NCBI GenBank assembly: GCA_019454045.1
Contig: SKCR01041835.1
Coordinates: 158,206-222,205, forward strand
Direction: 5' to 3'
Origin: Zanthoxylum bungeanum
Taxonomy: Eukaryota; Streptophyta; Magnoliopsida; Sapindales; Rutaceae
Length of the DNA stretch: 64,000 nt
Below, piece after piece: positions 19,161 through 62,898 of this stretch. Under the pieces are notes generated by a model. The model ran no database searches. It saw only the letters and a list, made by a program, of their open reading frames with translations, and was not told where the DNA came from. The translations under genes and the position numbers were made by a program. Numbering within the stretch: position 1 is the stretch's first letter; each line of letters begins with the position of its first letter.

Positions 19161-19316
19161 GAAGCAATTTTGGGGATGCGTCCCAGGGTTGTAACCCACT
19201 TCATCAGTATCAGCAGTTTTGGGGATGCGTCCTAGGGTTGTAACCCCCTTCATCAGTATTAGCAGTTTTGGGGATACGTCCCAGGGTTGTAACCCACCAT
19301 ATCACTATCAGTCTTT
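19161..19316 (+). repeat. Tandem repeat, unit about 57-60 bp, E2 3' UTR
   Basis: Three units contain TTTTGGGGATGCGTCC and AGGGTTGTAACCC. The later array is probably a shortened derivative. Confidence 0.8.
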
Positions 19317-20480
19317 GCCAAGTACGACACAGTTGGGGCGAGGCCCACGTCATTTTTCAGTCCTGCCAGGTATGGCATTCTGGGGGCGAGGCCCACATTT
19401 GCATCAGTTTGGGGCGAGGCCCATATCAGTATCAGTTTGGGCGAGGCCCATATCAGTATCAGTTTGGGCGAGGCCCATATCAGTATCAGTTTCGGGGATG
19501 AGTTCCAGGGCCGAGGCCTACATCACATCAGCTTCAGCATCAGTTTTCAGAGATGAGTCACAGGGTCAAGGCCCACATCAGCTTCAGTATTAGTTTTGGG
19601 GGATGAGTCTCAGGGCCGAAGCCCACATCTGTTACAGTATCAGTTTTTGGGATGAGTCCCAGGGTCGAGGCCCACATCAACATCATTATCAGTTTCGGGG
19701 ATGAGTCTCAGGGCCGAGGCGTGCAGCCACATTAGCATCAGTTTGGGGCGAGGCCCATATCAGTATCAGTTTGGGCGAGGCCCATATCAATATCAGTTTC
19801 GGGGATGAGTTCCAAGGCCGAGGCCTACATCACATCAACATCATTATCAGTTTCGGGGATGAGTCTCAGGGCCGAGGCCTGCAGCAGCATCAGTATCAGT
19901 TTGGGGCGAGGCCCATATCCACATCAGTTTGGGGCGAGGCCCATATCAGTTTGGGGCGAGGCCCACATCATTTCAGTTTGGGTAGTATCAGTTTGGGGTG
20001 AGGCCCATATCAGTTTGGGGCGAGGCCCATATCAGTCGGGGGCGAGGCCCACATCAGTGTCAGTCTGGGGGCGAGGCCCATACCAGTATCATTTTGGGTG
20101 AGGCCCATATCAGTGTCAGTCTGGGGGCGAGGCCCATATCAGTATCAGTTTGGGCGAGGCCCGTATCAGTATCAGTTTGGGGCTAGGCCCATATCAGTAT
20201 CAGTTTGGGGCGAGGCCCACATCAGTATCAGTCTGGGGCGAGGCCCATATCAGTATCAGTCTAGGGGCGAGGCCCATATCAGTATGAGTTTGGGCGGAGG
20301 CCCATATCAGTATCAGTTAGGGCGAGGCCCATATCGGTATCAGTCTGGGGGCGAGGCCCACATCAGTATTAGTCTGGGGCGAGGCCCATATCAGTATCAG
20401 TTTGGGCGAGGCCCATATCAGTATCAGTTTGGGGCGAGGCCCATATTAGTTTGGGGTGAGGCCCACATCAGTGTCAGTCT
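19317..20480 (+). repeat. Tandem array, unit about 27-28 bp, E2 3' UTR
   Basis: Some 35-40 variants of GGGGCGAGGCCCATATCAG follow each other, interrupted by longer GATGAGTC-CAGGGCCGAGGC variants at 19495-19885. Because many units are 27 bp, repetitive open frames (GRGPYQYQF) appear. They are not genes. Confidence 0.9.
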
Positions 20481-21180
20481 GGGAACAAGACCCACAACTC
20501 AATTCAGGGAACAATACCCACGGGAACAAGACCCATAATTCAGGGAATAAGACCCTCAACACAATTCAGATCGGGAACAAGCCCCACAACTCAGTTCAGG
20601 GAAAAAGACCCTCAACAAAATTCAGATCGGGAACAAGACCCACAATTCAGGGAACAAGACCCACAACTCAGTTCAGGGAACAAGACCCTCAAAAAATTCA
20701 GATCGGGAACAAGACCCACAATTCAGGGAACAAGACCCTCAGCTCAAAATGGGAACAAGACCCACGGGAACAAGACCCACAACAAAACTCAACACAATTC
20801 AGGGAACAAGACCCTCAGCTCAAATCAGGAACAAGACCCACAATCCAGATCGGGAACAAGACCCACAACTCAGTTCAGGGAACAAGACCCTCAACACAAA
20901 TCAGATCGGGAAAAAGACCCACAACTCAGTTCAGGGAACAAGACCCTCAACAAAATTCAGATCGGGAACAATACCCACAACTCAATTCAGGGAACAAGAC
21001 CCTCAGCTCAAAATGGGAACAAGACCCACGGGAACAAGACCCACCACTCAACAATTCAGGGAAAAAGACCCTCAACAAAATTCAGATCGGGAACAAGACC
21101 CACAATTCAGGGAACAAGACCCACAACACAATTCAGGGAACAAGACCCTCAGCTCACTTCGGGAACAAGACCCAGGGGTC
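20481..21180 (+). repeat. Tandem array, unit about 24-35 bp, E2 3' UTR
   Basis: It consists of units of GGGAACAAGACCCACAA and GGGAACAAGACCCTCA with optional CAGATC spacers. It is the reverse complement of the E1 array at 9601-10045, so both inherited it. Repetitive frames across it are not genes. Confidence 0.9.
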
Positions 21181-26176: not shown

Positions 26177-28096
26177 TAATGAGTGGTAAATCTATCACTA
26201 TTTCCCACTTATTTAACCTAATATTTTATACAATTTTCTTGAATTTTGTGAATATTTTGATGTGTTTTGTGTTATTTTGTAGATAAATAAAGTTTAAGGA
26301 CATTCTGGAGGTGATTTGGGGCCAAAACAGTGAAAAAGAACACAAAAGGGCATTTTGGTCATTTGGCGTGTCGCGACGTGCAGGCTGAGTCACGACGCCT
26401 AACGTGCGCCGTACTATGCTAATGTGCGCCGGGGAAACATGTCAGAATCTGAGAAGTTTGACTTTACTAACGTGCGCCAGACTCTGCTAACGTGCGCCGT
26501 GCCACATGTCATCATCCTATGGTGCCAACAATCACCATCGCCATGTGTCATCCCACGTGTCAGCCATGTCATCATCCACGTTAGCAGAAAACTGAGTCAA
26601 CCTGCCACTGTCAGCCATGTCATCATCAGCCAATCACAGCGTGCCACGTGTTGCAATTCTATGGTGCCGACAATCCCTTTCGCCATGTGTCGACACATCA
26701 GCACCACGTCAGAGCCACTTCAGCACAATTATTGAATTAATTATCCGCAATCTCCATTTTAGCGGATAAGAATCTGAACTGGCCAATCATAGAGCGACAC
26801 GTCATCGCGTAGCGACGCAAGAACAAACTTGGCGTCGCGACGCGGGAAGCTTATTGAGGCCTATAAATAGAGCTTGAAATTTCAGTTTCATATGTACCTT
26901 CCTCTGTGAATTCTCTGATGTAAATAGAGAGTTTTCTATCTAGTTTCTTTTACATTTTAGTTTTGTAATTGATTTTAATTACGTTTTGTAATAATAGTAA
27001 TTTACTTTTTTTACTTTTACAGTTTTTACTATTCAACATGAGGAGGTAACTTCCTCCTGCTAGGGTGAAAGGTAATTCTTTTACTATTGCTATTTAGATT
27101 AATCTCCCTTAAATATAATATATTCACTATTTAAAATTTGACTTAATCAGGTTACCGCCTATATGGCTGTTGATAAAATAATTATAAGTTAATATATTAT
27201 ATTAAGAGAGATATCTAAATTAGTAGAAGTAAAAGTTGATCCTTTTACCTTAGCATTTTATTTTATTGTAATTTACTTTTCAGCTTTTATTTTACCGCAA
27301 TTACTTTTCAGCATTTTTACTTTCTGTCTTTTACTTTTAAGTTTTTACTAGCCCTAGTTATGTGTTGTAACTAAGTTAGTTATCTGGGGTTGTGATGAAT
27401 TCTAATATCACCGGTTTATAAGGGGTTATTTTATAGTTTGGGTAATTTAAAGGTTTATTTATTAAGTCTTAAGCTTAATGCATCTTGTTAATTGGCCATT
27501 AATAAGATTGATCCGGTAAATCTAAAATTAACTTGACAAAGGAATTTTAGGTTTCAGCCTTAGACTTAATAGCCCACGATATTCCTTGAGGATAGATAAC
27601 CCTTTAATAGATTTCCTTACAGGATTGACATATACCTGTTGGGCGGGGGTAGCCATAATTGGAACTTAAACTTAATGATTCCAGATAATTTGGTTGACAT
27701 AGACATATGATTCAATTGGGTTATACTGGGTATTTGCGTCTGACCATCGACATAGGCTTTCTGATAATTTAGTGTTCCAGGTTAGTAAACCGATTTATTA
27801 CACGAACATGAAATAACCACTTCATTTTTAAAAATATATTAGAAAGATTCACAACCCTAGATAGTTTTATAATATTGAATTTTCTTAAACCTACTTTCGT
27901 GCAATTTATTTACTTGTTTTTTTAAATTAGAATCATCACCATTTCAAATCAATCAAACAACCTGTTAGATACTAGTAATCATTTGACCTCATAAAATTAA
28001 TAGATTAGGTATTAAGTCCTCGTGAGATCGTTACTTTTTATACTATTTGAACAATACATGCGCTTGCGTTATACACGTGTGTGTAAGCACCAGTCA
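26177..28096 (+). repeat. 5' LTR of A
   Basis: This 1920-bp LTR starts TAATGAGTGG, where the others start TGATGAGTGG, and ends GCACCAGTCA. The TATA box is TATAAATA at 26862-26869. Several CACGTG and CACGTC motifs retained in the 3' LTR are CATGTG or CATGTC here. It has one CCGCCTATATGGCTG unit at about 27157. Confidence 0.9.
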
Positions 28097-28102
28097 AGTT
28101 TT

Positions 28103-28120
28103 TGGCGCCGTTGCCGGGGA
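28103..28120 (+). other. Primer-binding site of A
   Basis: TGGCGCCGTTGCCGGGGA is complementary to the 3' end of plant tRNA-Asp, the primer of Athila elements. It lies six bases after the LTR. Confidence 0.9.
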
Positions 28121-29520: not shown

Positions 29521-29826
29521 TGATGAGTGGTATTTATACCACTATTTCCCACTCATTTGACCTAATGTTTTGTATTGTTTCTCGAGTTTTATGAACGTTT
29601 TGATGTGTTTTGTTGTTGTTATTTGCAGATAAATAAGTTTGGACAGCACTGGAGGCATTTGGGACAAAAACGGTTAAAAATGCGTCAACAGGAAAATCCA
29701 TCTTCTTCGCGTCGCGACGCTGGAGCCTTGCGCGCCGCGACGCCAAGCCTGCGCCGAAGTTGCTAAAATGCGCCGGGTCACAAAATCAGAATCTGAGAAA
29801 GTTGACTTTGCTAACGTGCGCCGTGC

Positions 29827-30280
29827 CACGTGTCACCATCACATCGGAGATGCTAAAATGCGCCGTGCCACGTGTCGAAATCTCATTTGCTCGGACGGCC
29901 ACCGCCCACGTGTCATGCCACGTGTCGCCACATCATCGTCCACATCAGCAGCCACGTCAGCAAGTCAACCGAGTCAACATGCCACGTCATCATAAGCCAT
30001 CACAGCATGACCACGTGTCAACATCTCATTCGTCCGACGGCCGCCGCCGCCCACGTGTCGCCACGTCGCCTTCCACATCATCAGCATGACGCAAGCAATG
30101 ACGTCATGAACAGTTGACACGTCAGCATGACGTAAGCGATGACGTCATGAACAGTGCCACGTCATCGGATCTCTTTGCCGCCTCGCAATGTCAGCCAGGA
30201 TTGAGCACGTCTCACTGTAGCGCGCGGCGCGACGCGCAGCCAGCGTCGCGACGCGCGCACCCCATCCGCGCCTATAAATA
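29827..30280 (+). promoter_or_regulatory. LTR promoter of C: G-box/C-box array and TATA box
   Basis: Perfect CACGTG occurs at 29827, 29869, 29907, 29919, 30012 and 30052, mostly as CCACGTGTC. Perfect TGACGTCA occurs at 30099 and 30140, with several CACGTC and one TGACGTAA between. TATAAATA is at 30273-30280. These motifs are known binding sites of plant bZIP and bHLH factors (CCACGTGTC resembles an ABA response element). Activity is inferred only. Confidence 0.7.
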
Positions 30281-30563
30281 GAGCGCGATGGTTCAGTTTT
30301 TGTTGTACCATTTCCTCTCTCCTCAAATCCTATGTAATTAGGGAGTTTCTCTCTCTCTAAGTTTCTTTTTATTAGTTTTTTGTAATTTTTAACCAAGTTC
30401 TGTAATAATAATAATTTACTTTCTTTATTTTACAGTTTTTACTACTCATTATGAGGAGGTAACTTCCTCTGTTAAGGTAAAAGGTAATTCTTTTACTATT
30501 ACTTCTTAGATTATTCTCCCATAATTATAATATATTCAAGTTTTAAATTGACTTAATCAGGAT

Positions 30564-30806
30564 ACCGCCAGATTGGTCGGTGGATAATAAAATTCATATT
30601 CCGCCTTTATGGCTGGTTTATTTAAATTCCGCCTTTATGGCTGGTTTATTTTCTGTTCCGCCTTTATGGCTGGTATATTTAAGTCCGCCTATATGGCTGG
30701 TTATTTTGATGTTCCGCCTTTATGGCTGGTTATTTTAAATGATTCCGCCTTTATGGCTGTTGTTTTTTTAAACTAATTAAATCAAAATACCGCCTATATG
30801 GCTGGA
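30564..30806 (+). repeat. Tandem CCGCCTTTATGGCTGG array in C 5' LTR
   Basis: About eight units of 25-32 bp share CCGCC(T/A)TTATGGCTGG with AT-rich spacers. Element A LTRs have a single unit, so it expanded in the C lineage. It lies downstream of the TATA box, thus probably in transcribed LTR. Confidence 0.9.
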
Positions 30807-31723
30807 TGAAATGTTTTGCAAAGCTTATATTATATTATGGGAGAAATCTAATTAGTATATAGTAGAAGTAATTCCTTTTTACCTTAGCAATTTTATTTTA
30901 ATTTACTTTCAGCAGTTATTTTACTACATTTACTTTATGCAATTTTATTTTAAGTCTTTTAAGTTTTTAGCCCTAGTTATGTGTCGTAGCTAAGTTAGTT
31001 ATCTAGGGTTGTGATGAATTTCAATTAAACTGGTTTATAAGGGTTAGATTATAGTTTGGGTAATTAAAGATTTATTTATTGAGTCTTAATCTTAAAGCTC
31101 TTTAATTAACTGGCCATTAATTAAATTGATTAGGTAAACTTAAAATGAACTAGACATAGGGATTTTAAGTTTAAGACCTTAGACTCAATAGCCCACGATC
31201 TTCCTTGAGGATAGATAACCCTTTAATAGATTTCCTTACAGGATAGGAATATACCTGTAGGGCGGGGGTAGCCATAATTGGAACTTAGACTTAATGAATC
31301 CAGGTAATGTGGTTGACATAGAATATGGTTCAATTGGGTTATACTAGGGTATTTGTAATTGACCATCGGAAGAGGCTTTTACATAAGTTAGTGTTCCAGG
31401 TTAATAAATTGATATATTACCCAACTATAAGATAACTACTACTTCATCTTTTAAATAATATTGAAATAAATCACAACCCTGGATAGTTTTTAATATTGAA
31501 TTTCTTTAAAATCTACTTTTAAGCAATTTCAGTTATTTGTCTTTAAATTTAGAATCATCGCCATTCCAAATCAATCAAACAACTTGTTAGATACTGGTAA
31601 TCATTTGGCCCAATAAATTGATAACAAAAAGGTTTTAAGTCCTCGTGGGATCGATACTTTTTATACTACTTGAACGATACGTACGCTTGCGTTATACGTG
31701 TGTGTTTACGCCGGTCAAGTTTT

Positions 31724-37131: not shown

Positions 37132-37984
37132 GCTGACGACTTTAAACTTAGCGCTCGCAGGGAGGCAACCCATGCAATTTTTGTATATATTGTGATTTGG
37201 TGTGATTTAATTTTGTGTGTTTAGTTTTTGCAGATTAAGTCATTTCAAGATGGAAGAAGCTCTCTCAAATCTTCACAAGCAATTTCCTTCTCTCCCTCAA
37301 AATCTCTGATGAAAGTCTACAAAGCTCGCTTGGAACGGGTGGTACAATCTATGTTGGTATGTTCCCAATGACATTGTTGTGTAAAGTGCACGCACGAGTG
37401 ATTGCTGACTCTTTTTGACTCTTTTGTTCACGGAAGATTGCCTGGTTTGAAGAGAAGCACCTATGGGTGAGAAAAAGAAAGCAACGTTGGTTTTGCAACA
37501 AGTTGGTCTTTGGAATGCGTTTCTTCTAATGAGCACTGGTTGTTTTCATAACGGAAGGAATTAAGGGATTTAGGCAAGGACGATTCTTAGGATGTCAGTT
37601 CACATCTTACATAGAATTCGCAGATTACATACACAATTTCAATTGAAAGACGAGATCTTCTTGGTTCAAGAAAAAAAGACCATGTTTCAAGTTAATGAAG
37701 AATTTGATAAGATTGGAATGTGACGCATGTACAACAAACTGGAAATTAATATATAATGTGTGTTGTTTCCCTAAAATTATAAATTTTTTGTTGTTTACTT
37801 TTTCTTCCGACAGGATCCAGCTTGAACTATCACGTTATCATACGATCTATTTCCTACTAATCGTCTTTGGAATAGTGCTATTTTTACTTTTTACTTCAGG
37901 TTTTAATAATATTCAAGAAATTCATCTTTTAGACATAGTCAACAGAATAAGAAAATTTGAAAAAGATAATTCATAAAACAGAAG
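37132..37984 (+). other. Spacer between integrase and LOG (element C)
   Basis: It begins with an AGGGAGGCAACCCATGC phrase shared with A at 55748. Later parts align only loosely with the Cys-rich ORF region of A (55840-56305), with many indels. No open frame survives. Confidence 0.6.
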
Positions 37985-38625
37985 TTAAGAGAAAACATCT
38001 CATGTGTGTTTTGTGGATACTTCTGGTTGAAAACAATACAAGAATTTGTGACTTTTGCACTAAGCACAGACAAAGGAGCATGCAGGAAATAAGTGGCGAA
38101 TATCATTTAATAAGGCGGAGGAAGGATACTTAGGGGATCGATCAAGTTTCAAGCGTGGGAAGGAGGCAGTCATTTGTTTTGAATCGTCCCAAACCCTTGG
38201 CAGAGGCAAATCTTATTGGATCATCAAACGGAGAGGAACTGATCGTATCAGGTATGTCTGAACGTTTGGTAGAAATGATTAACCGTGCTGATGCTTTTAT
38301 TGCTTTGCCAGGTGGCTTGGGTACATTGGAGGAAATTTTTATAGTTCTATCTTGGGCGAACCTGAACATACACCAGAAACCAATTGGACTACTCAACGTT
38401 GATGGATTTTATGATTTTCTTTGTGTGTTTCTTGATGATGCTCGGAGAAATGGGTTCGTGTCAAAACCTATGAAAGACCTCCTCTTCACTGCCAGACTTG
38501 CTCCGGATCTGATAGACCAACTCATAGCCTATGAACCACAAGTTGACCCTATCCTATCAAAGATAAATTGGTCTGAGGACGATCGTGGTAAGAGGCGTCG
38601 AATTAATCTGGATCTTAACCTTTAA
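37985..38625 (+). pseudogene. LOG: Captured LOG-like gene, 5' part rearranged (element C)
   Basis: A short remnant (ENISCVFCG) at about 37990 matches the expected N-terminus. Then about 140 bp diverge, and from 38142 the sequence aligns with copy A. From 38155 it is open for 156 codons without an ATG at its start. It contains MSERLVEMINRADAFIALPG, then PGGLGTLEEIF, the signature of the LOG/lysine-decarboxylase-like family (cytokinin riboside 5'-monophosphate phosphoribohydrolase), and GLLNVDGFYDFL. The family Arg and Glu of the active site are both present. The first Rossmann strand and the GGG loop are missing, so the encoded piece is probably not active alone. It ends INLDLNL-stop. Confidence 0.8.
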
Positions 38626-39958: not shown

Positions 39959-42146
39959 TGATGAGTGGTATTTATACCACTATTTCCCACTCATTTGACC
40001 TAATGTTTTGTATTGTTTCTCGAGTTTATGAACGTTTTGATGTGTTTTGTTGTTATTTTGCAGATAAATAAAGTTTGGACAGCACTGGAGGCAATTTGGG
40101 ACAAAACCGGACAAAAATGCGTCAACAGGAAAATTTCATCTTCTGCGCGTCGCGACGCTGGGCCTTTGCGCGCCGCGACGCCCAGCCTGCGCCGAAGTTG
40201 CTAAAATGCGCCGGGGTCCACAAAATCAAATCTGAGAAAGTTGACTTTGCTAACGTGCGCCGTGCCACGTGTCACCATCACAACGGAGATGCTAAATGCG
40301 CCGTGCCACGTGTCGAAATCTCATTGCTCGGACGGCCACCGCCCCACGTGTCATGCCACGTGTCGCCACATCATCGTCCACATCAGCAGCCACGTCAGCA
40401 AGTCAACCGAGTCAACATGCCACGTCATCATAAGCCAATCACAGCATGACACGTGTCAAAATCTCATTCGTCCGACGGCCGCCGCCCCACGTGTCGCCAC
40501 GTCGCCTTCCACATCATCAGCATGACGCAAGCAATGACGTCATGAACAGTTGACACGTCAGCATGACGTAAGCGATGACGTCATGAACAGTGCCACGTCA
40601 TCATCGGATCTCTTGCCGCCTCGCACGTGTCAAGCCAGGTTGAGCCACGTCTCACTGTAGCGCGCGACGCGACGCGCAGCCAGCGTCGCGACGCGCGCAC
40701 CCATCCGCGCCTATAAATAGAGCGCGATGGTTCAGTTTTTGTTGTACCATTTCCTCTCCCAAATCCTATGTAATTAGGGAGTTTCTCTCTCTCTAAGTTC
40801 TTTTTATTTAGTTTTTGTAATTTTTAACCAGTTCTGTAATAATAATAATTTACTTTCTTTATTTTACAGTTTTTACTACTCATTATGAGGAGGTAACTTC
40901 CTTCTGTTAAGGTAAAAGGTAATTCTTTTACTATTACTTCTTAGATTATTCTCCCATAATTATAATATATTCAAGTTTTAAATTGACTTAATCAGGATAC
41001 CGCCAGATTGGTCGGTGGATAATAAAATTCATATTCCGCCTTTATGGCTGGTTTAATTTAAATTCCGCCTTTATGGCTGGTTATTTTCTGTTCCGCCTTT
41101 ATGGCTGGTATATTTTCATTCCGCCTATATGGCTGGTTTTTTGATGTTCGCCTTTATGGCTGGTTATTTTAAAATGATTCCGCCTTTATGGCTGGTTGTT
41201 TTTAAACTAATTAAATCAAATACCGCCTATATGGCTGGATGAAAATGTTTTGCAAAGCTTATATTATATTATGGGAGAAATCTAATTAGTATATAGTAGA
41301 AGTAATTCCTTTTTACCTTAGCAATTTTTTTTAATTTACTTTCAGCAGTTATTTTACTACATTTACTTTATGCAATTTTATTTTAAGTCTTTTAAGTTTT
41401 TAGCCCTAGTTATGTGTCGTAGCTAAGTTAGTTATCTAGGGTTGTGATGAATTTCAATTAAACTGGTTTATAAGGGTTAGATTATAGTTTGGGTAAATTA
41501 AAGATTTATTTATTGAGTCTTAATCTTAAAGCTCTTTAATTAACTGGCCATTAATTAAATTGATTAGGTAAACTTAAAATGAACTAGACATAGGGATTTT
41601 AAGTTTAAGACCTTAGACTCAATAGCCCACGATCTTCCTTGAGGAGATAACCCTTTAATAGATTTCCTTACAGGATAGGAATATACCTGTAGGGCGGGGG
41701 TAGCCATAATTGGAACTTAGACTTAATGAATCTAGGTAATGTGGTTGACATAGGAATATGGTTCAATTGGGTTATACTGGGTATTTGTAATTGACCATCG
41801 GAAGAGGCTTTTACATAAGTTAGTGTTCCAGGTTAATAAATTGATATTTTACCCAACTATAAGATAACTACTTCATCTTTTAAATAATATTGAAATAAAT
41901 CACAACCCTGGATAGTTTTTAATATTGAATTTCTTTAAAATCTACTTTTAAGCAATTTTAGTTATTTGTCTTTAAATTTAGAATCATCGCCATTCCAAAT
42001 CAATCAAACAACTTGTTAGATACTGGTAATCATTTGGCCCAATAAATTGATAACAAAAAGGTTTTAAGTCCTCGTGGGATCGATACTTTTTATACTACTT
42101 GAACGATACGTACGCTTGCGTTATACGTGTGTGTTTACGCCGGTCA
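39959..42146 (+). repeat. 3' LTR of C
   Basis: This 2188-bp LTR is collinear with the 5' LTR, including the ACGT-motif array (about 40265-40600), TATAAATA at 40712-40719 and the CCGCC array at 41000-41242. The differences I see are mostly single-base indels. Confidence 0.95.
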
Positions 42147-51548: not shown

Positions 51549-52130
51549 AAAAGAACAATCCACCACTTGGATTCCAACAGTAGAAGTGTAGAACTATCCA
51601 CCACATGGATTCCAACAACCAAATAAATGCGGGGAGGGAGCATGAATGAGAACCAAGAATAATAGAAGTGATGCCCCAGTGGAAAATCAAATGGGACAAC
51701 TGGCCAATGCTCAGAGTTACAGACCGCCAGGTAATCTTCCAGCAACACAGAACCAAATCTAAGGAACCGAGGGAAGGAGCAATGTCAAGCTATCACCTTG
51801 AAAAGCGGTACTGAAATCAACAAAGATGTTGGAATCAAGGCAACAATTGAGGAAGTTTCAAAAGATGCAGTGCCACAGATGGAGGAAAAAGAAGCAAAAG
51901 AAAAATAAAAAGATCAGATCACTTCACCTCCACCTTTCCTCAGCGACTTCAGAAAAACAACTGGACAAGCAATTTGCTCGTTTCTTGGAGGTTTTCAAAA
52001 ACCCGCACATCATCATCCCATTTGCAGAAGCCTTGGAAGAAATGCCCAGCTATGTAAAATTCATGAAATACATTCTTTCACGAAAACATAGATTGAGAGA
52101 TTACGAGATAGTAGCATTGACGGAAGAATG
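51549..52130 (+). pseudogene. Athila-like gag, 3' part (element A)
   Basis: It resumes A gag after B (PPLGFQQ-like text, then NQMGQLANAQSYRPPGNLP), the Lys-rich linker and KQLDKQFARFLEVFKNPHII. It aligns with C gag at 32905-33480. Small frame changes are present. Confidence 0.85.
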
Positions 52131-52680
52131 CAGTGCCATCATTCAGAGGAAACTTCCCCCAAAGTTGAAAGATCCTGGCAGTTTCACTGTCCCATGCACC
52201 ATTGGAGAACACTATATCGGTAAGGCTTTATGTGATTTAGGTGCAAGTGTTAATTTGATGTCTTTTTCTATTTACAGGAAACTACAAATTGGAGAAGCAA
52301 TGCCTATATTAGTCTCACTACAACTTGCTGATCGAACGCTCGCATTTCCAAGAGGTGTTGTTGAAGATGTGCTAGTCAAAGTCGACAAACTCATTCTTCC
52401 AGCAGATTTCATTATCCTTGACATGGAAGAAGACAAAGAAGTACCTATCATTCTTGGGAGACCATTCTTGGCTACGGGTAAAACTGTGATTGATGTGCAA
52501 AAATGAGAACTGACCATGAAAGTGCAGGACCAAGAAGTTACCTTCAATGTTTTCAAAGCCATGAAATTCCCTAGTGATGAAAATGAAGAAGAATGCTTCA
52601 GAATTGATGTTGTTGATAGTATCGTTCAGGATACTAATACAACTCCACGGACAAACTTGAAGTTTGTATCACCAACATGA
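52131..52680 (+). pseudogene. Athila-like aspartic protease (element A)
   Basis: GKALCDLGASVNLMSFSIYR (active site DLGAS) and VPIILGRPFLATGK are intact. A TGA at 52504-52506, directly after VIDVQK, ends the frame where C reads on. Confidence 0.85.
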
Positions 52681-54420
52681 CTGACAACGAGCTAGATGCT
52701 GAAATCCTGGAATGTATCAACTACCTTGACAAACCATTACGATTCAAAGCGACACCATAAGTGGAAAGCCTGGAACTGCCAAAGAAAGATCGAATCAAGC
52801 CTTCGATTGAAAAACCACCACAGCTGGAGCTGAAGTTACTTTTGAGCCATATCAGGTATGCATTTCTTGGAAACTATTCTGAATTACCTGTTATTATTTC
52901 TTCTTCACTAACATTGGAGCAGGAAGAAAAGTTGCTGAGAGTATTACGAGAGCAAAAAAGAGCCATTGGTTGGACTATAGCAGACATTCGAGGCATTAGT
53001 CCATCATTTTGCATGCACAAGATTCTGATGAATGAAGAGTATAAACCTACAGTGGAGCATCAACAGAGACTCAATCCAATCATGAATGAGGTCGTAAAGA
53101 AAGAAATCATCAAATGGGTGGATGCTGGCATCATTTACCCTATCTCGATAGTACTTGGGTGAGTCCTATACAGTGTGTGCCGAAGAAAGGAGGAATCACT
53201 GTGGTTACCACTGAAAAGAACGAGATAATCCCCACCAGAACGGTAACTCGATGAAGAGAATGCATGGACTACCGAAAGCTGAACAAAACAACACGGAATG
53301 ACCATTTTCCACTACCATTCATTGATCAAATGCTGGACAGATTAGCGGGACATGAGTTCTATTGCTTTCTGGACGGATATTCAGGATACAATCAGATTGC
53401 CATCGCCCTAGAAGATCAGGAGAAAACTACATTCACATGTCCCTATGGTACTTTTGCTTTTCGCAAAATGCCATTTGGATTATGTAATGCCCCCGCTACA
53501 TTTCAGCGTTGCATGATGACAATCTTCTCAGACATGTTGGAGCAGAGTATGAAGGTTTTTATGGATGAATTTTCTGTGTTTGGAGATTCTTTTGACCAGT
53601 GCTTGCAAAATTTGGAACAAGTATTACAAGGTGCGAATATACAACCTGGTACTCAATTGGGAGAAATGTCATTTCATGGTACAAGAAGACATTGATATTG
53701 GACACCGGATCTCACAAAAAGGAATTGAGGTAGACAAAGCAAAGATTGAAACAATTGAAAAACTACCTCCACCAACATCTGTCAAAGGGATTCGGAGCTT
53801 TCTCGGACATGCAGGATTTTATAGGAGATTTATCAAAGACTTTCCAAAGATTGCTAAACCTCTTTGCAATCTTCTGGAGAAGGATGTGCCTTTTAACTTC
53901 ACCAAAAAATGCCAGGAAGCTTTTGAGATCTTAAAATAAAAGCTGATTTCTGCCCCCATCATTGTAGCACCAGACTGGACCCTTCCATTTGAAGTAATGT
54001 GCGATGCTAGTGATTTTGCTGTATGTGCAGTTTTGGGACAACGCAAAGCAAAGATTTTCCACACCATTTACTACTCCAGCAGAACTCTGAATGAAGCTCA
54101 ACTCAACTACAAAACCACTGAAAATGAGTTGCTCGCAGTTGTGTACGTTTTTGACAAATTCTGCTCCTATCTGCTGAGTCCCAAAGTGGTGGTCTACACA
54201 GATCATTCAGCAATCAAATATCTGATCATGAAGAAAGATGCCAAACCCAGATTGATCCGTTGGATACTTCTTCTGTAAGAATTTGACGTAGAGATCAGAG
54301 ATAGGAAATGGACAGAAAACCAAGTGGCAGATCATCTGTCGAGGCTCGAGAATGGAGAAACAGCTGGCAAAGATCTGTCAATCAAAGAAACTTTTCCAGA
54401 TGAATAGCTGTTTGCCATGA
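52681..54420 (+). pseudogene. Athila-like reverse transcriptase and RNase H (element A)
   Basis: The order is as in C. The RT catalytic box reads VFMDEFSVFG, with the second aspartate changed to glutamate (about 53560-53568), which should abolish polymerisation. Frame changes occur near 53150, 53230 and 53630. Stops include TAA at 53937-53939 (ILK*KL) and TAA at 54277 (ILLL*E). RNase H motifs CDASDFAV and [10 protein letters not shown] are readable. Confidence 0.9.
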
Positions 54421-55730
54421 AACAGCAAGATGCCCATTGGAATGTTGACTATGTCAACTACATTGTGTTAGGAAAATGGCCGTTGGAATGGACAACTCAG
54501 CAACAGAAGAAATCTTCAAATAAGTCAAGCACTATGTCTAGGATGAGTCGTACCTGTTCAAACGGTGTGCTGATCAATTATTGAGACGGTGTGTTCCACA
54601 TAAGGAGGTCAACAGTGTTCTACAACACTGTCATTCGTCACCATATGGCGGACACTTTAGCGGAAATAAAACTGCAGCCAAATTCCTACAATCAGGTTTG
54701 TTCTGGCCCACTCTTTTTAAAGATGTTTATCTTTTTGCTCTTCAATGTGACAGGTGCCAGAGAATGAGGAATATTTCAAAGAGAAATGAAGGACCGTTGC
54801 AAAACATTCTGGAAGTGGAGATATTCGATGTATGAGGTATAGATTTCATGGGGCCCTTTGTTCCATCATTCGGAAACATGTACATCCTGGTTGCTGTAGA
54901 CTACGTCTCCAAATGGGTTGAAGCAATTGCACTACCATCCAATGATTCAAAAGTGGTGATCAAATTCCTAAAAAAGAATATTTTCACTCGGTTCGGAACA
55001 CCTCGGGCAATTATCAGTGATGGTGGCTCAGATTTCTACAACAGATACTTTGATGCACTCATATCCCAATACGAAGGTTGCAACTTCTTATCATCCACAG
55101 TCAAATGGACAGGTTGAAGTTTCAAACAGGGAAATCAAAAGAATCTTGGAGAGAACTGTTGGATCAACAAGGAGAGACTGGTCAACAAAATTGGATGACG
55201 CATTATGGGCCTATCGGACAACTTACAAGACACCCATTGGTATGTCCCCATATCGATTGGTGTTTAGGAAAGCGTGACATCTGCCAGTTGAGCTTGAACA
55301 CAAGGCGTACTGGGCACTGAAGAAGTTGAATCTTGATTCACAAGCTGCATGAGAGAAACGACTTCACCAACTCAACGAATTGGAGAAATTTCACTTACAA
55401 GCTTATGAGAATGCCAAATTGTACAAAGAAAATACCAAGAAATGGCATGATCGAAAAATAGTGCACAGACAGTTGGAACCAAGGCAGCAAGTGTTGTTGT
55501 ACAATTCACGGTTGAAACGTTTCCCTGGAAAGTTGAAATCAATGTGGTCAGGTCCATTTGTGATCACTTAGGTTTTACCATATGGAGCTGTTGAGTTACC
55601 GGATCCCAACACCAATGAAACATTCAAGGTTAACAGTCAGCGTCTGGGGAGAATCATTTGAGCGACAAAAAGAAAGTGTCACACTTTCAGATCCAGCCTA
55701 ACGTTCGAGAAGTCACGTCTAGCTGACGAC
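54421..55730 (+). pseudogene. Athila-like integrase (element A)
   Basis: [67 protein letters not shown] and WSGPFVIT are present, so all three acidic core positions can be read. Stops and shifts occur at about 54525, 54835, 55070, 55275 and 55570. Confidence 0.9.
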
Positions 55731-55915
55731 GTTAAACTTAGCGCAAGCAGGGAGGCAACCCATGCAATTTGTGTATATATTGTGATTTGGTGTGATTTCA
55801 TTTTGTGGTTTAGTTTTCGCAGGTTAATTCATTTCAGGATAGAAGAAGTTCTCGCAAATCTTCACAAGCAATTTCTTTTTCTCCCTAAAAAATCTCTGAT
55901 TAAAGTCTACAAAGC

Positions 55916-56305
55916 TTGCTTGGAACGAATGAGATTATTGATGATCAAGGTATTCCTACTGACATCCGTTGGATTATTGAAGCACGGGTCCGATTGGCAG
56001 GTAAGTCTTCTGACCCTTTTATTTCACATCTGCCTGGTTTAAGAATGAGCACCTATGCTAAAAAGAGAAGAGACAAAAGAATGTGTGTTTGTTATAAATG
56101 TGCTCGTATGTTTTGTGATACTCGTTGTCGTTCTTTAGGAATGATGTCTGATAACCGTGAAGATAAGATTAATTTCATTAGGGATGACTTGAGTAAGAAG
56201 TCTTTGGATATATATCTAAAACTCTTGAGACGCATCCCAGTGGATATGTGTATCACGAAATTCGTGTGTTATATGCACAATTTCAAAGAGAAAGACAACA
56301 GTTAA
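55916..56305 (+). CDS. Unknown Cys-containing ORF between integrase and LOG (element A)
   Basis: The frame is open for 129 codons. Upstream of it stops interrupt the reading, so the true start is uncertain. It is basic and begins around NEIIDDQGIPTDIRWIIEAR. The middle has CVCYKCARMFCDTRC (spacing C-x-C-x2-C-x4-C-x3-C) and the end VDMCITKFVCYMHNF. I do not recognise the family. The matching region of C is broken. It sits where Athila elements can have an env-like gene, but I see no signal peptide or membrane segment. Confidence 0.45.
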   Translation: MLGTNEIIDDQGIPTDIRWIIEARVRLAGKSSDPFISHLPGLRMSTYAKKRRDKRMCVCYKCARMFCDTRCRSLGMMSDNREDKINFIRDDLSKKSLDIYLKLLRRIPVDMCITKFVCYMHNFKEKDNS

Positions 56306-56632
56306 GTCTCGGGAATCTGACTCAAAAAAACCCTGTTTGCCAATTTATAAGAAAATTGGATGATAAGCTTGTCCTAACGCATAGACGTCAATCAAGCTGC
56401 TAAGTTTCTTGTATATATTATATCTCTTTGTCTTTTCATAATAATTGTAATTTGTTTTGTTGTTTTCTTTTATTTTCTCCGACATGATCCATACCTTTTT
56501 TACTATTACGATTTATTTTACTGTTTAACTAATAATTGTCATTTGGTAGGTACTAGTGCTATTATTTTACTCACCCTTTTCAAGTGTTATAAATTCAACT
56601 CATCATTGCACTTTTGAAGACATCCAGAGTAA
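56306..56632 (+). other. AT-rich spacer before LOG (element A)
   Basis: No gene. It ends with a TAA at 56630-56632, in frame with LOG, which limits the LOG reading frame on its left. Confidence 0.6.
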
Positions 56633-57289
56633 AACATAGAATCCGCTACAAGAAGACGAGTTGAAAACATATGTGTGTTTTGCGGTACTAGTGTTGGTGT
56701 TAAGCCATAATACGTAGAAGCATCACATGAATTGGGTCGAGTCTTAGCTGCAAGGAATATGCACTTAGTATATGACGGATGCAATCTTGGACTTATAAGG
56801 ATCGTTTCAAAGGTTGTACAAGAATGAGGCAGTCATGTTTTGGGAATCATCCCAAAACCCTTGGCAGAAGCAAATCTTATTGGACCATCAAACAGAGAAG
56901 AGTTAATCGTGCCAGGTATGTCTGAACGACTGGTAGAAATGATTCATCGTGCTGATGCTTTTATTGCTTTGCCAGGTGGCTTGGGTACATTGGAGGAAAT
57001 TTTTACAGTGTTATCTTGGGCGAACCTGAACATACACCAGAAACCGCTTAGACTGTACAACATTGAAGGATTCTAGGATTTTCTTTATGTGTTTCTTGAT
57101 GATGCTCGGAGAAATGGGTTCGTGTCAAAACCTTTAAAAGAACTCCTCTTCACTGCCAGAACTGCTCTAGATCTAATTGACCAAATCATAGCCTATGAAC
57201 CACAAATTGACCCTATCATTTCAAAGATAAATTAGTCTGAAGACGATCGTGGTAAGAGGAGTCAGATTAATTTGGATCTTAACCTTTAA
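56633..57289 (+). pseudogene. LOG: Captured LOG-like gene, full length but broken (element A)
   Basis: One frame runs through about 218 codons with no frameshift and no intron. It reads like a plant LOG enzyme, which releases active cytokinin base from the riboside monophosphate. Near the start is RRRVENICVFCGTSVG, the nucleotide-binding first strand. HLVYDGCNLGL is a decayed form of the family GGG loop. MSERLVEMIHRADAFIALPG and PGGLGTLEEIF carry the catalytic Arg and Glu, and the end is INLDLNL. Damage: the probable start codon is ATA (56636-56638), and stops lie at 56708 (TAA), 56825 (TGA), 57074 (TAG) and 57233 (TAG). At two of these (56825, 57074) copy C has sense codons for G and Y, and at 57233 it has W. 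Normal LOG length is about 210-220 residues. Confidence 0.85.
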
Positions 57290-58564
57290 CTTTTCATTTA
57301 GATATAGAATTTCAGCTAACCAGTACGGTTTTCTAAACTCTTTTCTACTGTTTAGACATTGGGGACAATGTCTCATTTAGGTTTGAGGGAGGAGATTAGT
57401 TAGATTGTTTCTTACTTTTAGTCTAAAATTTTTCGATAAATACAAAAAAATTGAATTTTTTTCAAAAATTACAAAAATATCTGCGTTTTGTGTTTTTATT
57501 TTGACTAAAAATGTGAAATTGGTAAGAGATAGCTGAGTAAGGAGTTTCCACACCTGAGACGTATCTCAAACCTAATTCGGAACAAGTTAATTTTTGTTTA
57601 TTTCCTTTTGAATTATTTAATTTTTGAATTCTCAATAATACTGACTAAAATGGATTTTCATATGCTCTGTTAGCAGGTATTATCAACATGCATAGTAACA
57701 TACGGACATGAGCTATAATTGAAAAGTTTGTAATATTCAGTGCTATAGTTTAATTTGAGGAAGCATATCAAAAAGTGATGGAGTAAAAAAAACGTCTGAG
57801 ATCCGAGTTATTAAGTCTGTAAGAGTGTTTTAACACCTAGTACCCTAAAGCCAACTGGTTTGGGAGTCACTGGCCCAAAACTCGCTGCATGGATCAAAGA
57901 TGTTGCAAAAATATATATATCTGAAGTCTAAGTATTAAGTCCGTGGGGGTGTCTTAACACCTGGTGCCTAAAGCAAACTGGTTTGGGAGCCACCGACTCA
58001 ACACACGCTACATAGATGAAAGATATTGTATATAAATAAAAAAAATCAAAGAAAAAATCAGAAAAATGAGAAAAATTATCCATTGCTACAAAAAGGTGTG
58101 AATTCTGATAAAACTTTAGGACAAAAATATTACTCTCTTATAAACTGCACTTGTGACTGTTGTGGGCAAAAATGAGTTGTTTAATATTTTATCGGCTATG
58201 TATATGGAGAATAGTAAATATAATAGGAGAATTTACTTATTCGGTAATTTAGAAAGAAAGAAAACAACTAGTGACATGGAGTAGAAGTTTCACCTGATTA
58301 GTTACTAACTTCTTTATTCTATTTTCTCTTGTCTTTTTGCTTTTGTGTGCATTAGTTTTTACTACATTTTTACTGTTGTAAAATGTTTTATGGGTATCAT
58401 TGCTGTAAAACCCTCACGAGAACAACTCGTCCACTAGGGACACCTAGGGGTTTAAAGGCTTATTGAATACGCTAAATGCAATCGTGACCCCTATGAAATG
58501 GCTTAGTTAAATTTAATTATGTTATTTATTTTGTATTTTGCTCGAGGACTAGCAAAATGTTAGG
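57290..58564 (+). other. 3' untranslated region of A
   Basis: Non-coding and collinear with 38626-39948: GACATTGGGGACAATGTC at 57355, the AT-rich palindromic stretch and the 125-bp tandem duplication (about 57794-58040). The long A-run of C is only seven A here. Confidence 0.75.
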
Positions 58565-58574
58565 TTTGGGGGTG
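58565..58574 (+). other. Polypurine tract of A
   Basis: TTTGGGGGTG directly precedes the 3' LTR, as in C. Confidence 0.8.
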
Positions 58575-61500
58575 TGATGAGTGGTAAATCTATCACTATT
58601 TCTCATCATTTAACCTAATATTTTGTACAGTTTCTTGAGTTTTGTGAATATTTTGATGTGTTTTGTGTTATTTTGTAGATAAATAAAGTTTCACGACATT
58701 CTGGAGGTGATTTGGGGCCAAAACAGTGAAAAAGAACACAAAAGGGTATTTTGGTCATTGGGTGCGTCGCGACGCGCAGGCTGAGTCACGACGCCTAACG
58801 TGCGCCGGGGACACTGTTGGGGTTGGTGCTCAGAGCACCAATTCCCGGTTGTATTTCTTTATGAATACTTCTGTAAAACATTATTATTATGAATAATATA
58901 TGCAGTTTCTATAATATAATGTATATTTTAATATGGTAAAGACGTAATGACCTTAGAATGATTAGTCATGGTACTGTTGCAAAAGCGTCGCAACGACATT
59001 GAGTAGTATCATGACGTTGTCATTCTCAGACAGTTCCTAGTCAAGGTTTACACTACTTGGTCAGTATAGTAAACCCGTTGAGACCGGTACATGTCGTATA
59101 CTGGAATATATGATTCCAATGGTTTCTCAATGAACCATGAGTCTTGGAGACTGGTATAGACGTGTGGGTGTTTATAGCGGATAAACACTGAACGAATCAC
59201 CGAAGATTCTTAATGGATGGTACACCAACGTCAATAAGAATCTTCTCGGGTTGAGTAGCACTTGTGATTCTTAGACTTGAGATGCCATTGTGGGCACATG
59301 AGACATCTTCTACACCTAGATGGCAGTCACGTCACCGATCTATTTAGATCAGACCTCCGCCTGTTCGTTGGGTGTAGATAGATCCTCAGGGTGTCCTATG
59401 TGTGTCAAGATATGATCCGTCAATTCTGTGTATCAGAGCATATGTAGTTCACATGATTAGCAATCAGATAAAACCATGGGCCCGTGGTACATTTTAGAAA
59501 CTAGTTCTAAACATTCTTTTTGAGATTGCTAATAGAATAGTCGACTGGATAATCCTCATAGAGATTTGACGTTTACATCTATATCTCTAGGATATATCCG
59601 AATACCTGTGACAGAGGAATTATACATTTGTCATGACCTCGACCTGTATGATTCAGCGAATTTATCTGTGATCGTCATAATTTACGGGTGGATGAATTGT
59701 GGACACGAAATTAGATTTCGTGACGGATATGCCTGAATCTAGAGTCTCAATAATGAAATATACTCGTAGAGCATTAGAGCAACATTTATAAATAATATTG
59801 ATTATTTATAAAGTCGTTTAAAGGTTAAACGTAAAATACATGTGTAGGGACCCGATAGTCATTTCCTTAATTTTTGTGTATTTACAATTAATACTTGATT
59901 AATTCAAATACACATTAATTAATTGTCAAATTGAGATATTTGACTAATATCCTAAATGAATATATGTATTTGATATTAATGTAAATATAATACATATATT
60001 TAATATATTTGTATTCAATTAATTAATTAATTATTAATTGTTAAATGATTAAATTAATTAAAATATAAATATCTTAACATTTGGATATTTGAATTAAATG
60101 GCTAAGTTGCCTTTGTTGACTTAATTAAAATATCTATAAAGTGTTGATTAGATATTTAACAAGTTGATCAAATTATAACCAAATGAAATTAAAATTAATT
60201 TTGTTGTATTTGCCTTTACCATTTTCGGCCAAGGCCATTTCTTGGCAAGTATAAATTGTTTCATTTCATTTTGGTAAATTAACCTAATACTTTTACAAAC
60301 TCCATTAAAAAGAAACAAAAGAAGTTTGTGAGGAAGAAGAAGAAAACAAAGAGAAAATCAAAGAAAGCTTAAGATTAGTAAGTTTCTTCAACCTACTATT
60401 AGAAGGGAAAATGTTCATTAAGATCTAGGCTAATCTTGTGATATTCTCATGTTATTCTTTTCTTTATTCTTTTTGTTTTTGATGAATGGAAGTTTGGTGA
60501 AGTGTTGAGAGCAGTATGATGATGGAAGCTTCTGACTAATGTAGTTATAAGTGTTCTTTTATGGTTTTGGAAACTTTGTTGCTAATCTAGAGTTTTTGAC
60601 CAACTCTTAAATGACCTAGATTTGATCTATAGTTATGTCATTGTGTTGAGACTTTAATTGGATGGAAGATGATGATTAAAGTAATTGGTTTAACCAATTT
60701 GGTCTAATTTGTCCAATTTGAAGAAATTGAAAAATTAGGGTTTAAGACCTTATCCAAATTTAGGGCTTTTCATTTATGTTGTGTATAAGGATGTGTATAT
60801 GATGCATATAAACTTTCATATTGATTGGATTTCATTTGGATGTGTCTTGAAGCAGGAAGTGCAAAATGCACAATAATGAACCCTTGTGAGGCTCTCGGCC
60901 AAATGGAAGAAATTGGGGATTTATGTTGCCTTTGGTGTTTTGACATTTATGACATGTTAAGTTCATCTTAGAAATGATTCAGAATCATCCAAAATTGATT
61001 TGAACAATTTCAGACTAAAATGAACAAGATACCAAGTGTAAGGGAAATTCGGTAAATTCACATGAATATGATTTATTGAATTTTATTTCATAATTTGATT
61101 ATTAGGTAATTAAATAATATGTTTATTTAATGAATCCGAGAAAAATTTTTGAAATCAGAAAATTTGATTTTCCACCGTTTCCGCTGCGCGTTACCGGATT
61201 TAGCCCCTAAAACCCCTACAGACACATGTCAGAATCTGAGAAGTTTGACTTTGCTAACGTGCGCCGTGCCACGTGTCACCATCACAGTTGATCTGCTAAT
61301 GTGCGCCGTGCCACATGTCATCATCCTATGGTGCCAACAATCACCATCGCCACGTGTCATCCCACGTGTCAGCCACGTCATCATCCACGTCAGCAGAAGA
61401 CCGAGTCAACCTGCCACGTGCAGCCACGTCATCATCAGCCAATCACAGCGTGCCACGTGTTGCAATTCTTTGGTGCCGAAAATCCCTTTCTCCACGTGTC

Positions 61501-62898
61501 GACACATCAGCACCACGTCAACATAATTATTGAATTAATTATCCGCAATCGCCACGTCAACGGATAAGAATATGAACCAGCCAATTAGAGAGCGACACGA
61601 CATCGCGTAGCGACACAAGAACAAATTTGGCGTCGCGACGCGGGAAGCTTATTGAGGCCTATAAATAGAGCTCAAAATTTCAGTTTCAGATGTACATTCC
61701 TCTATGAATTCTCTGATGTAAATATGGAGTTTTCTATCTAGTTTCTTTTAAATTTTAGTTTTGTAATTAATTTTAATTACGTTATGTAATAATAGTAATT
61801 TATTTTTTTTACTTTTACAGTTTTTACTATTCAACATGAGGAGGTAACTTCCCCCTATTAGGGTGAAAGGTAATTCTTTTACTATTTCTATTTAGATTAA
61901 TCTCCCTTAAATATAATATATTCACCATTTAAAATTTGACTTAATCAGGTTACCGCCTATATGGCTGGTTGATAAAATAATCACAAGTTAATATATTATA
62001 TTAAGGGAGATATCTAAATTAGTAGAAGTAAAAGTTGATCCTTTTACCTTAGCATTTTATTTTATTGTAATTTACTTTTAAGCTTTTACTTTACCGCAAT
62101 TACTTTTCAGCATTTTTACTTTATGTCTTTTACTTTTAAGTTTTTACTAGCCCTAGTTATGTGTTGTAACTAAGTTAGTTATCCGGGGTTGTGATGAATT
62201 CTAATATCACCGGTTTATAAGGGGTTATTTTATAGTTTGGGTAATTTAAATGTTTACTTATTAAGTCTTAAGTTTAATGCGTCTTGTTAATTGGCCATTA
62301 ATAAGATTGATTTGGTAAATCTAAAATTAACTTGACAAAGGAATTTTAGGTTTCAGCCTTAGACTTAATAGCACACGATCTTCCTTGAGGATAAATAACC
62401 CTTTAATAGATTTCCTTACATGATAGACATATACATGTCGGGCGGGGGTAGCCATAATTGGAACTTAAACTTAATGAATCCAGATAATTTGGTTGACATA
62501 GAAATATGGTTCAATTGGGTTATACTGGATATTTGCGTCTGACCATCGACAGAGGCTTTCGCATAATATAGTGTTCCAGGTTAGTAAACCGATTTATTAC
62601 ACAAACATGAAATAACCACTTCATCTTTTAAAAGATATTAGAAATATTCACAACCATAAATAGTTTTCTAATATTGAATTTTCTTAAACCTACTTTCGTG
62701 CAATTTTATTTACTTGTTTTTTTTAAATTTAGAATCATCACCATTTCAAATCAATCAAACAACTTGTTAGATACTAGTAATCATTTGACCTCATAAAATT
62801 AATAGATTATGTATTAAGTCCTCGTGAGATCGATATTTTTTATACTACTTGAACGATAGGTGTGCTTGCGTTATACACGTGTGTGTAAGCACCGGTCA
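58575..62898 (+). repeat. 3' LTR of A, split by F2
   Basis: LTR sequence at 58575-58814 and 61226-62898 adds to about 1913 bp, against 1920 for the 5' LTR. TATAAATA is at 61660-61667. CACGTG and CACGTC motifs at 61268-61550 are better preserved than in the 5' LTR. Confidence 0.9.
58815..61220 (+). mobile_element. Element F2: solo LTR of a Copia-type element
   Basis: It is 2406 bp, starts TGTTGGGGTT, ends AACCCCTACA and is flanked by a perfect GACAC duplication (58810-58814 and 61221-61225). Removing it restores the A LTR (compare 26415-26445). It is related to the F1 LTR. It has no primer site or coding sequence, so recombination between its two LTRs probably removed the rest. Confidence 0.9.

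What the first reader, a model, noticed from the sequence alone, without database searches (positions are those of the whole stretch)
56633..57289. Athila-like retrotransposon that carries an intronless LOG cytokinin-activating gene
The sequence shows a collinear LOG-family reading frame (about 218 codons, VFCG near the N-terminus, PGGLGTLEE in the middle) inside element A, between integrase and the polypurine tract. A second copy occupies the same place in element C. The family function (cytokinin riboside monophosphate phosphoribohydrolase) is established. Plant LOG genes have several introns, so an intronless copy implies capture from mRNA. The inference is that an ancestor of A and C took up a host cytokinin gene at the env position and amplified it. 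A cytokinin source could favour dividing, meristematic cells in which the element can reach the germ line. I do not know of a described Athila lineage with this cargo.
Basis: partly seen in the sequence, partly recalled or inferred. Interest (0 to 1): 0.9.

Follow-up and report, generated by a model that had tools for sequence, protein, structure and literature searches.

The report
Plant retrotransposon carrying a LOG-derived gene
A family of plant retrotransposons carries, after its integrase gene, a copy of a plant hormone-activating gene (LOG) that shows signs of selection but is altered in its substrate pocket, so it may no longer make cytokinin; such cargo has been reported before in Citrus and poplar elements.

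Summary
The LOG frame is real (56636-57286, 217 codons, gapless against a full-length relative, four in-frame stops). It lies in element A, a nested Ty3/gypsy element of Athila-type anatomy (26177-62898), between integrase and polypurine tract. Element C has LOG at the same place, but only its last 145 codons are open; the rest was probably broken before C inserted. A and C copies are sisters in a clade of LOG proteins from unnamed public contigs; one relative (P0111) also shares about 230 bases of spacer upstream of LOG. A-C dN/dS in LOG is 0.28, just above the pol pieces (0.07-0.26): not neutral. Prior art exists: LOG (YgdH) domains in Gypsy elements of Citrus and Populus (PMC9289625). Less expected: (1) most relatives keep the catalytic Arg/Glu, but nearly all lost the Lys and Glu of the base/prenyl pocket, and those that reach the end mostly finish in LxLxL, absent from 25 canonical and bacterial LOGs compared; (2) between integrase and LOG lies a second extra gene whose relatives match the carlavirus nucleic-acid-binding protein family. 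The cargo reading holds, the novelty claim does not, and 'cytokinin source' is doubtful. Capture from mRNA is plausible, not shown.

The parts
26177..28096 (+). 5' LTR of element A
   Evidence: main part differs from the 3' LTR by 5.9%; borders
28103..28120 (+). primer binding site of A, TGGCGCCGTTGCCGGGGA, tRNA-Asp type (tRNA identity recalled), 6 bases after the LTR
   Evidence: tRNA-Asp PBS of the Calypso/Diaspora lineage in PMC1142308
29292..51548 (+). Copia-type element D (type recalled from its LTR ends and primer site) inserted in A's gag region, target duplication AAAAG, itself holding element C
29521..31717 (+). 5' LTR of element C
   Evidence: 1.8% difference to 39959-42146
39959..42146 (+). 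3' LTR of element C
51826..55274 (+). pol region of A (RT, RNase H, integrase matched; the protease part has no Pfam match in A), frame broken in places
   Evidence: Pfam RVT_1, RT_RNaseH, Integrase_H2C2, rve on separate pieces
55839..56376 (+). NABP-like extra gene of A, broken by frame shifts
   Evidence: tblastn with P0126 in three frames; relatives match Viral_NABP/Carla_C4
56405..56635 (+). spacer upstream of LOG, shared with the unnamed contig of P0111
56636..57286 (+). LOG-derived gene of A, 217 codons, four in-frame stops
57290..58574 (+). 3' untranslated region of A with polypurine tract abutting the LTR
58575..58807 (+). first part of the 3' LTR of A
61221..62898 (+). rest of the 3' LTR of A, after an insert
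37250..37467 (+). remnant of the NABP-like gene in element C
37969..38187 (+). degenerate first third of LOG in C
38188..38622 (+). open last 145 codons of LOG in C

Best explanation
Elements A and C belong to one family of Athila-type Ty3/gypsy retrotransposons that carries two extra genes between integrase and the polypurine tract: a small protein like the carlavirus nucleic-acid-binding protein, then a LOG-derived gene. The LOG gene was in the family before A and C parted and was kept by selection while the family moved; the stops in A most likely arose after insertion, and C was probably mobilised with an already broken copy. The protein is most likely no longer an ordinary cytokinin-activating LOG: it keeps the LOG fold and the catalytic Arg/Glu pair but has lost the base/prenyl-binding His, Lys and Glu, and it carries a disordered basic tail ending in LxLxL, the form of an EAR (TOPLESS-binding) motif. 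I think it acts as an accessory protein of the element, probably in the nucleus, through nucleotide binding or hydrolysis of changed specificity together with co-repressor binding. Shown: anatomy, shared site, constraint, pocket loss, tail. Inferred: intact in A at insertion, C broken before insertion, nuclear action, co-repressor binding, changed substrate.
For: LOG identity. Element anatomy (LTR pairs, PBS, PPT, target duplications, RT/RH/IN). Shared site in A and C. Sister copies (95/86) inside a 12-row clade (100/99) apart from the 7 canonical plant LOGs in the tree. A relative elsewhere with the same upstream spacer: P0111. Constraint: A-C dN/dS 0.275 over 143 codons (bootstrap 0.14-0.52), codon-position differences 18/7/22 of 145 each; seven pol pieces 0.07-0.26. 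Pocket: window copies have Ser, Leu and Thr/Ile where CgLOG has His97, Lys100, Glu125; in the 88-member tail group Lys is kept in 2 and Glu125 in 1, against 25 of 25 canonical plant and bacterial-type LOGs for each. Tail: strict terminal LxLxL in 47 of 57 members that reach the end, relaxed 55 of 57, against 0 of those 25; disordered in the model of P0001. LxLxL as an EAR motif, and EAR binding to TPL in other proteins: PMC11171833, passages.
Against: No enzyme or binding data. 75 of 88 relatives keep the catalytic Arg and 83 of 88 the Glu, so hydrolase activity, even on cytokinin precursors, may persist. The tail group was drawn partly by exclusion from the 120 listed: five relatives with intact pocket and no tail were set aside on those features, two of which the tree puts at the base of the same 67-row clade; counting all five, Lys is lost in 86 of 93. 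Only P0111 is tied to the element by more than LOG, and its spacer might instead be the donor gene's own leader captured with LOG; that the tail group sits in elements is inferred. No contig is shown to hold both extra genes outside this window. LxLxL is short and could serve something else. A search for long fusion proteins found none. The ratio 0.275 is above every pol piece (highest 0.264), a frame shifted by one base still gives 0.41, and the codon-position test is only p 0.02.
Confidence: 0.5

Rival explanations
1. The captured LOG still works as a cytokinin-activating enzyme and helps the element by favouring dividing or meristematic cells.
For: LOG fold of relative P0001; PGGLGTLEE and the catalytic Arg and Glu present in both window copies; constraint on the frame.
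Against: Lys100 of CgLOG is among the binding-site residues tested by change to Ala, which nearly abolished activity (PMC4979012, passages); it is Leu here and lost in 86 of 88 relatives, and Glu125 is kept in 1 of 88 with 2 gaps. 11 of 88 have Gln and 2 have Lys at the catalytic Arg. C probably inserted with a broken LOG.
Confidence: 0.2
2. Passive cargo: a LOG copy picked up by chance, carried along and decaying, with no role for the element.
For: Both window copies are broken; C is young (LTR difference 1.8%) and was probably broken already.
Against: dN/dS 0.275 with bootstrap upper bound 0.52; 48 of 51 tail-group members of 210 aa or more keep PGGxGTxEE, and LxLxL ends occur down to 43-45% identity to the query (P0077, P0079, P0080, P0082).
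Confidence: 0.12
3. The tail group is a host LOG subfamily (labelled LOGL10 in Populus); the elements took their copy from it, and pocket and tail are host features.
For: Five tail-group members are annotated Populus genes; many relatives sit on contigs of about 1 kb that could be host transcripts; the shared spacer of P0111 could be a captured leader.
Against: Only 5 of 88 tail-group members are in annotated genomes, against 5 of 7 canonical plant LOGs (the list is cut at 120, so this is soft). The spacer in A sits straight after the NABP-like gene. Populus elements with the LOG domain are reported (PMC9289625).
Confidence: 0.28

Closest known systems
Gypsy elements with a YgdH (LOG) domain in Citrus sinensis, C. 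clementina and Populus trichocarpa (PMC9289625, passages; citing Steinbauerova et al. 2011, Genetica 139:1543, not held)
   Same: LOG-family domain carried in a plant Ty3/gypsy LTR element. From recall, the 2011 abstract names two Athila-like elements with similarity to LOGL4.
   Different: The passages seen give no pocket or tail analysis, no selection test and no NABP-like neighbour. The species here is unknown.
Athila/Calypso/Diaspora lineage (PMC1142308, passages)
   Same: tRNA-Asp-type primer site 5-6 bases after the LTR, gypsy pol, extra coding region after pol as in Athila and Calypso
   Different: The extra region here holds an NABP-like and a LOG-derived gene; Diaspora has none, Athila and Calypso an envelope-like one.
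Plant LOG enzymes (Arabidopsis 2a33, 1ydh) and CgLOG (5its)
   Same: Fold, PGGxGTxxE motif, catalytic Arg and Glu
   Different: His97, Lys100 and Glu125 of the base/prenyl pocket replaced; basic LxLxL tail present
Carlavirus nucleic-acid-binding protein (Pfam Viral_NABP, Carla_C4)
   Same: Matched by 19 and 18 of 20 family members scanned, the window's own included
   Different: The window's own ORF scores just below both curated cut-offs; no viral sequence was compared directly

Membership tests
Athila-type Ty3/gypsy element | LTR pairs with target-site duplication | tested here: met
   A duplication 4 of 5 bases alike (GCGGT/ACGGT); C duplication ATTAT with one base lost on the left
Athila-type Ty3/gypsy element | pol order RT, RNase H, integrase | tested here: met
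Athila-type Ty3/gypsy element | tRNA-Asp-type primer binding site just after the LTR | tested here: met
   with PMC1142308; that the 18 bases pair with tRNA-Asp is recalled
Athila-type Ty3/gypsy element | RT tree places it with Athila | not tested
   no reference Athila RT was fetched
Athila-type Ty3/gypsy element | Pfam ATHILA model match (model recalled) | tested here: inconclusive
   gag region of C matches Retrotrans_gag only; region decayed
LOG phosphoribohydrolase | fold and PGGxGTxxE motif | tested here: met
   fold on relative P0001
LOG phosphoribohydrolase | catalytic Arg and Glu (CgLOG Arg99, Glu122) | tested here: met
   2 of 2 window copies
LOG phosphoribohydrolase | base/prenyl pocket His97, Lys100, Glu125 | tested here: not met
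   Ser, Leu, Thr/Ile in the window copies
LOG phosphoribohydrolase | cytokinin ribotide hydrolysis | not testable with these tools
   needs an enzyme assay
Carlavirus-type NABP | Pfam Viral_NABP above curated cut-off | tested here: inconclusive
   window ORF 22.1 bits against cut-off 23; best family member E 1.1e-8
EAR-motif protein | LxLxL motif | tested here: met
   motif form in PMC11171833
EAR-motif protein | binds TOPLESS-type co-repressor | not testable with these tools
   needs a binding assay

The most novel reading that the evidence does not exclude
A long-lived retroelement gene, born from LOG, has exchanged its cytokinin pocket for a new role and gained a nuclear co-repressor-recruiting tail. 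Working beside a carlavirus-like nucleic-acid-binding protein, it would let the element interfere with host transcription or silencing. The tree (midpoint-rooted) suggests a path: relatives with intact pocket and no tail (P0036, P0037), then pocket plus tail (P0038), then tail without pocket.
Probability: 0.28. Interest if true: 0.78.

Novelty: new variant of a known kind. Interest (0 to 1): 0.5.

Why it matters
Extra genes of plant LTR elements most often lack known domains (so PMC9289625). Here one is a recognisable enzyme with clear, testable changes (lost pocket, LxLxL tail) and signs of selection, so what an env-position gene does for a plant retroelement becomes a bench question. It also warns that some genes annotated as LOGL10 may be element genes and not cytokinin enzymes.

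Tried and rejected
Chance frame: rejected. LOG as a separate later insertion in A and C: rejected, same position and orientation in both. Neutral decay in every copy: disfavoured. Only two copies: disfavoured. Other copies in public DNA: four scans of viral contigs (P0001, A3 of the NABP family, P0040, P0005) and one of genome contigs (P0001) found none; these collections are viral or prokaryotic, so this says little about plants. Long proteins fusing LOG to other domains: 1573 candidates, none at E 0.001 or better. NABP-like model too weak to use (mean pLDDT 52.4). The window's own genome was not searched: the genome search gave no answer six times. A splice-acceptor-like stretch upstream of LOG was considered and left aside: no RNA data.

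Literature. Athila with lysine decarboxylase: 0 papers. LTR retrotransposon with cytokinin riboside: 3, listing only. Athila/nucleic acid binding/Carlavirus, two of three: 38, 20 listed; PMC5967125 holds all three, unrelated in passages; PMC12596083 passages, nothing on LOG. LONELY GUY/retrotransposon/transduplication, two of three: 68, 20 listed. Athila/env-like/gene capture, two of three: 26, 20 listed; PMC7264820 passages have no LOG term. PMC13317346 passages: no Athila, cytokinin or lonely. YgdH with retrotransposon: only PMC9289625. EAR motif/LxLxL/LONELY GUY: 1, unrelated to LOG tails in passages. Retrotransposon/LOGL/YgdH terms, three of five: 3, two of them without retrotransposon. 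Carla C4/Betaflexiviridae terms, four of five: 0. Open-licence papers only.

Rows set aside before counts: P0093 and P0105 (unsure place) and P0023, P0024, P0036, P0037, P0068 (intact pocket, no tail). The bacterial-type 18 and canonical 7 were assigned by me from tree and listing; only 10 of the 18 are in the tree. Tail counts use only members that reach the end. The LOG search listed 120 of 1132 relatives; the NABP search listed all 42.

Full report
Observation. The named frame is real. Translating 56633-57289 gives a LOG protein with four stops before its own (codons 25, 64, 147, 200). Pfam Lysine_decarbox matches at E 3.9e-31 and LDcluster4 at 7.6e-13; the Arabidopsis chain 2a33 matches at E 4.1e-49 over residues 3-200. 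Against the 217-aa relative P0001 there is no gap, so the copy has no intron.

Element anatomy. Self-comparison, borders and LTR alignments give a nested structure. Element A runs 26177-62898. Its LTRs (26177-28096; 58575-58807 plus 61221-62898) differ by 5.9% in the main part and 5.2% in the first part, and its flanks match a repeat at 6029-7423 that lacks A. A Copia-type element D sits in A's gag region with target duplication AAAAG, and element C sits in D's 5' LTR. The LTRs of C (29521-31717, 39959-42146) differ by 1.8%. Both A and C have the primer site TGGCGCCGTTGCCGGGGA after the 5' LTR and the same polypurine tract before the 3' LTR. Pfam finds RT, RNase H and integrase in pieces of A and C, and gag in C; protease only weakly in C, below cut-off. 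PMC1142308 (passages) gives a tRNA-Asp primer site 5 bases after the LTR for Diaspora, as in Calypso; here it is 6, and that the 18 bases are of tRNA-Asp type is recalled. I call the element Athila-type; no RT tree was made.

LOG in A and C. A and C differ by 10.6% through pol, 10.7% in the last part of LOG and 9.9% in the 3' untranslated region, but 17-18% in the LTR ends compared, and blocks from 55850 to 56899 are only 48-73% alike. C therefore has a strongly diverged, indel-ridden NABP region and LOG first third next to an open LOG last part (145 codons). Because the LTRs of C are nearly identical, this damage most likely preceded its insertion (inference); recombination between element lineages would explain the sharp change.

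Selection. Over the 143 comparable codons (2 stop pairs skipped) A-C dS is 0.262 and dN 0.072, ratio 0.275, bootstrap 0.14-0.52; frames shifted by one and two bases give 0.41 and 1.40. Codon-position differences are 18, 7 and 22 (chi-square p 0.02). Seven pol pieces, two of them overlapping, give 0.07-0.26, all below LOG. From the LTRs about 3.9% of the A-C difference arose after insertion, where the frame was free, so the ratio while the family was moving was probably lower (inference).

Relatives. A search of 5.8 billion proteins gave 1132 LOG relatives, of which the best 120 are listed; several of the closest (P0001-P0004, P0006, P0007, P0009) are 76-83% identical, on ENA contigs of 0.8-1.3 kb. 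In a tree of 84 rows A and C are sisters (95/86) in a 12-row clade (100/99). A larger clade of 67 rows (100/95) is split from the 7 canonical plant and 10 bacterial-type LOGs; the root is the midpoint, for drawing only. P0111 has an 84-residue N-terminal extension, of which residues 8-84 match the untranslated spacer of A at 56405-56635 (64% identity over the stretch including the LOG start). So at least one further contig has spacer plus LOG; whether the spacer is element sequence or a leader captured with LOG is open. P0008 and P0010 show weaker matches to the end of that spacer. That a bacterial-type gene caller made these proteins (P0004 begins with M where P0001 has V) is inferred; full-length frames in clusters whose longest contigs are 9.6 and 11.3 kb (P0005, P0079) fit intronless copies.

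Pocket and tail. [quoted passage not shown] changing the tested residues to Ala, except Ser19, nearly abolished activity. I mapped these by their spacing to the PGG motif, not by an alignment with CgLOG. Both window copies keep Met, Arg, Glu, Glu and Trp but have Ser for His97, Leu for Lys100 and Thr or Ile for Glu125. In the 88-member tail group His is kept in 11, Lys in 2, Glu125 in 1 (2 gaps), catalytic Arg in 75 (Gln in 11, Lys in 2) and Glu122 in 83. In 25 other LOGs (7 canonical plant, 18 bacterial-type) His, Lys and Glu125 are kept in 25 of 25; so they are in the 5 no-tail relatives, but these were set apart for that. Terminal LxLxL: strict 47 of 57, relaxed 55 of 57, none of the 25, none of the 5. 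The model of P0001 is a LOG fold (top match 2a33, 46% identity) with residues 203-217 below pLDDT 50. With the five no-tail relatives added, Lys is lost in 86 of 93. LxLxL is the form of an EAR motif, which in some HD-ZIP II proteins is needed to bind TPL (PMC11171833, passages); no such binding was tested here.

Second extra gene. Between integrase and LOG, A has a broken gene at 55839-56376. Its ORF 55916-56305 scores just under the cut-offs of Viral_NABP (E 1.7e-4) and Carla_C4 (E 0.0019). It has 42 relatives; of 20 members scanned, itself included, 19 match Viral_NABP (best 1.1e-8) and 18 Carla_C4 (best 2e-7). C holds a remnant at 37250-37467. Of the longest-contig lengths in the two lists only 760 and 1022 occur in both, too short for both genes, so joint occurrence outside this window is not shown.

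Prior art. PMC9289625 (passages) reports the YgdH domain, as in LONELY GUY proteins, in LTR consensus sequences of two Citrus species and, without a filter, of Populus trichocarpa, in line with Steinbauerova 2011. The 2011 paper is not held; from recall its abstract mentions two Athila-like elements with similarity to LOGL4. The kind is therefore known. I found nothing in print on pocket, tail or NABP neighbour of such elements in the searches told under Tried and rejected, which cover open-licence papers only and were mostly seen as listings.

Verdict. The cargo is real and was maintained, but of a known kind. The cytokinin story is doubtful, and the altered pocket with an LxLxL tail and a virus-like neighbour is the part worth testing. 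On checking the draft I lowered confidence slightly (0.55 to 0.5, novel case 0.30 to 0.28, host-subfamily rival raised 0.25 to 0.28), because the P0111 spacer may be a captured leader and five of the thirty comparison rows were chosen for the feature compared.

Noticed in passing
window 55839-56376 and 37250-37467: A gene like the carlavirus nucleic-acid-binding protein lies between integrase and LOG in both elements; its 42 relatives include one named protein, of Rhamnella rubrinervis (P0141).
   Followed up: partly
window 58808-61220: Insert in the 3' LTR of A; parts of it have inverted copies within 12385-14205.
   Followed up: no
window 6029-7423: Repeat related to the sequence on both sides of element A, without A: an empty-site copy.
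   Followed up: partly
window 17879-18554 and 21331-22007: Direct repeat 98.5% identical, possibly an LTR pair of another young element.
   Followed up: no
window 9189-10044 and 19154-21174: Arrays of related repeats, in opposite orientations to each other.
   Followed up: no
P0010: Looks like a mosaic of two LOG subgroups: one stretch as in the A/C clade inside a P0008-type protein.
   Followed up: no
P0008, P0010-P0012, P0017, P0021, P0025, P0030, P0060, P0074, P0108: LOG relatives with Gln in place of the catalytic Arg.
   Followed up: partly
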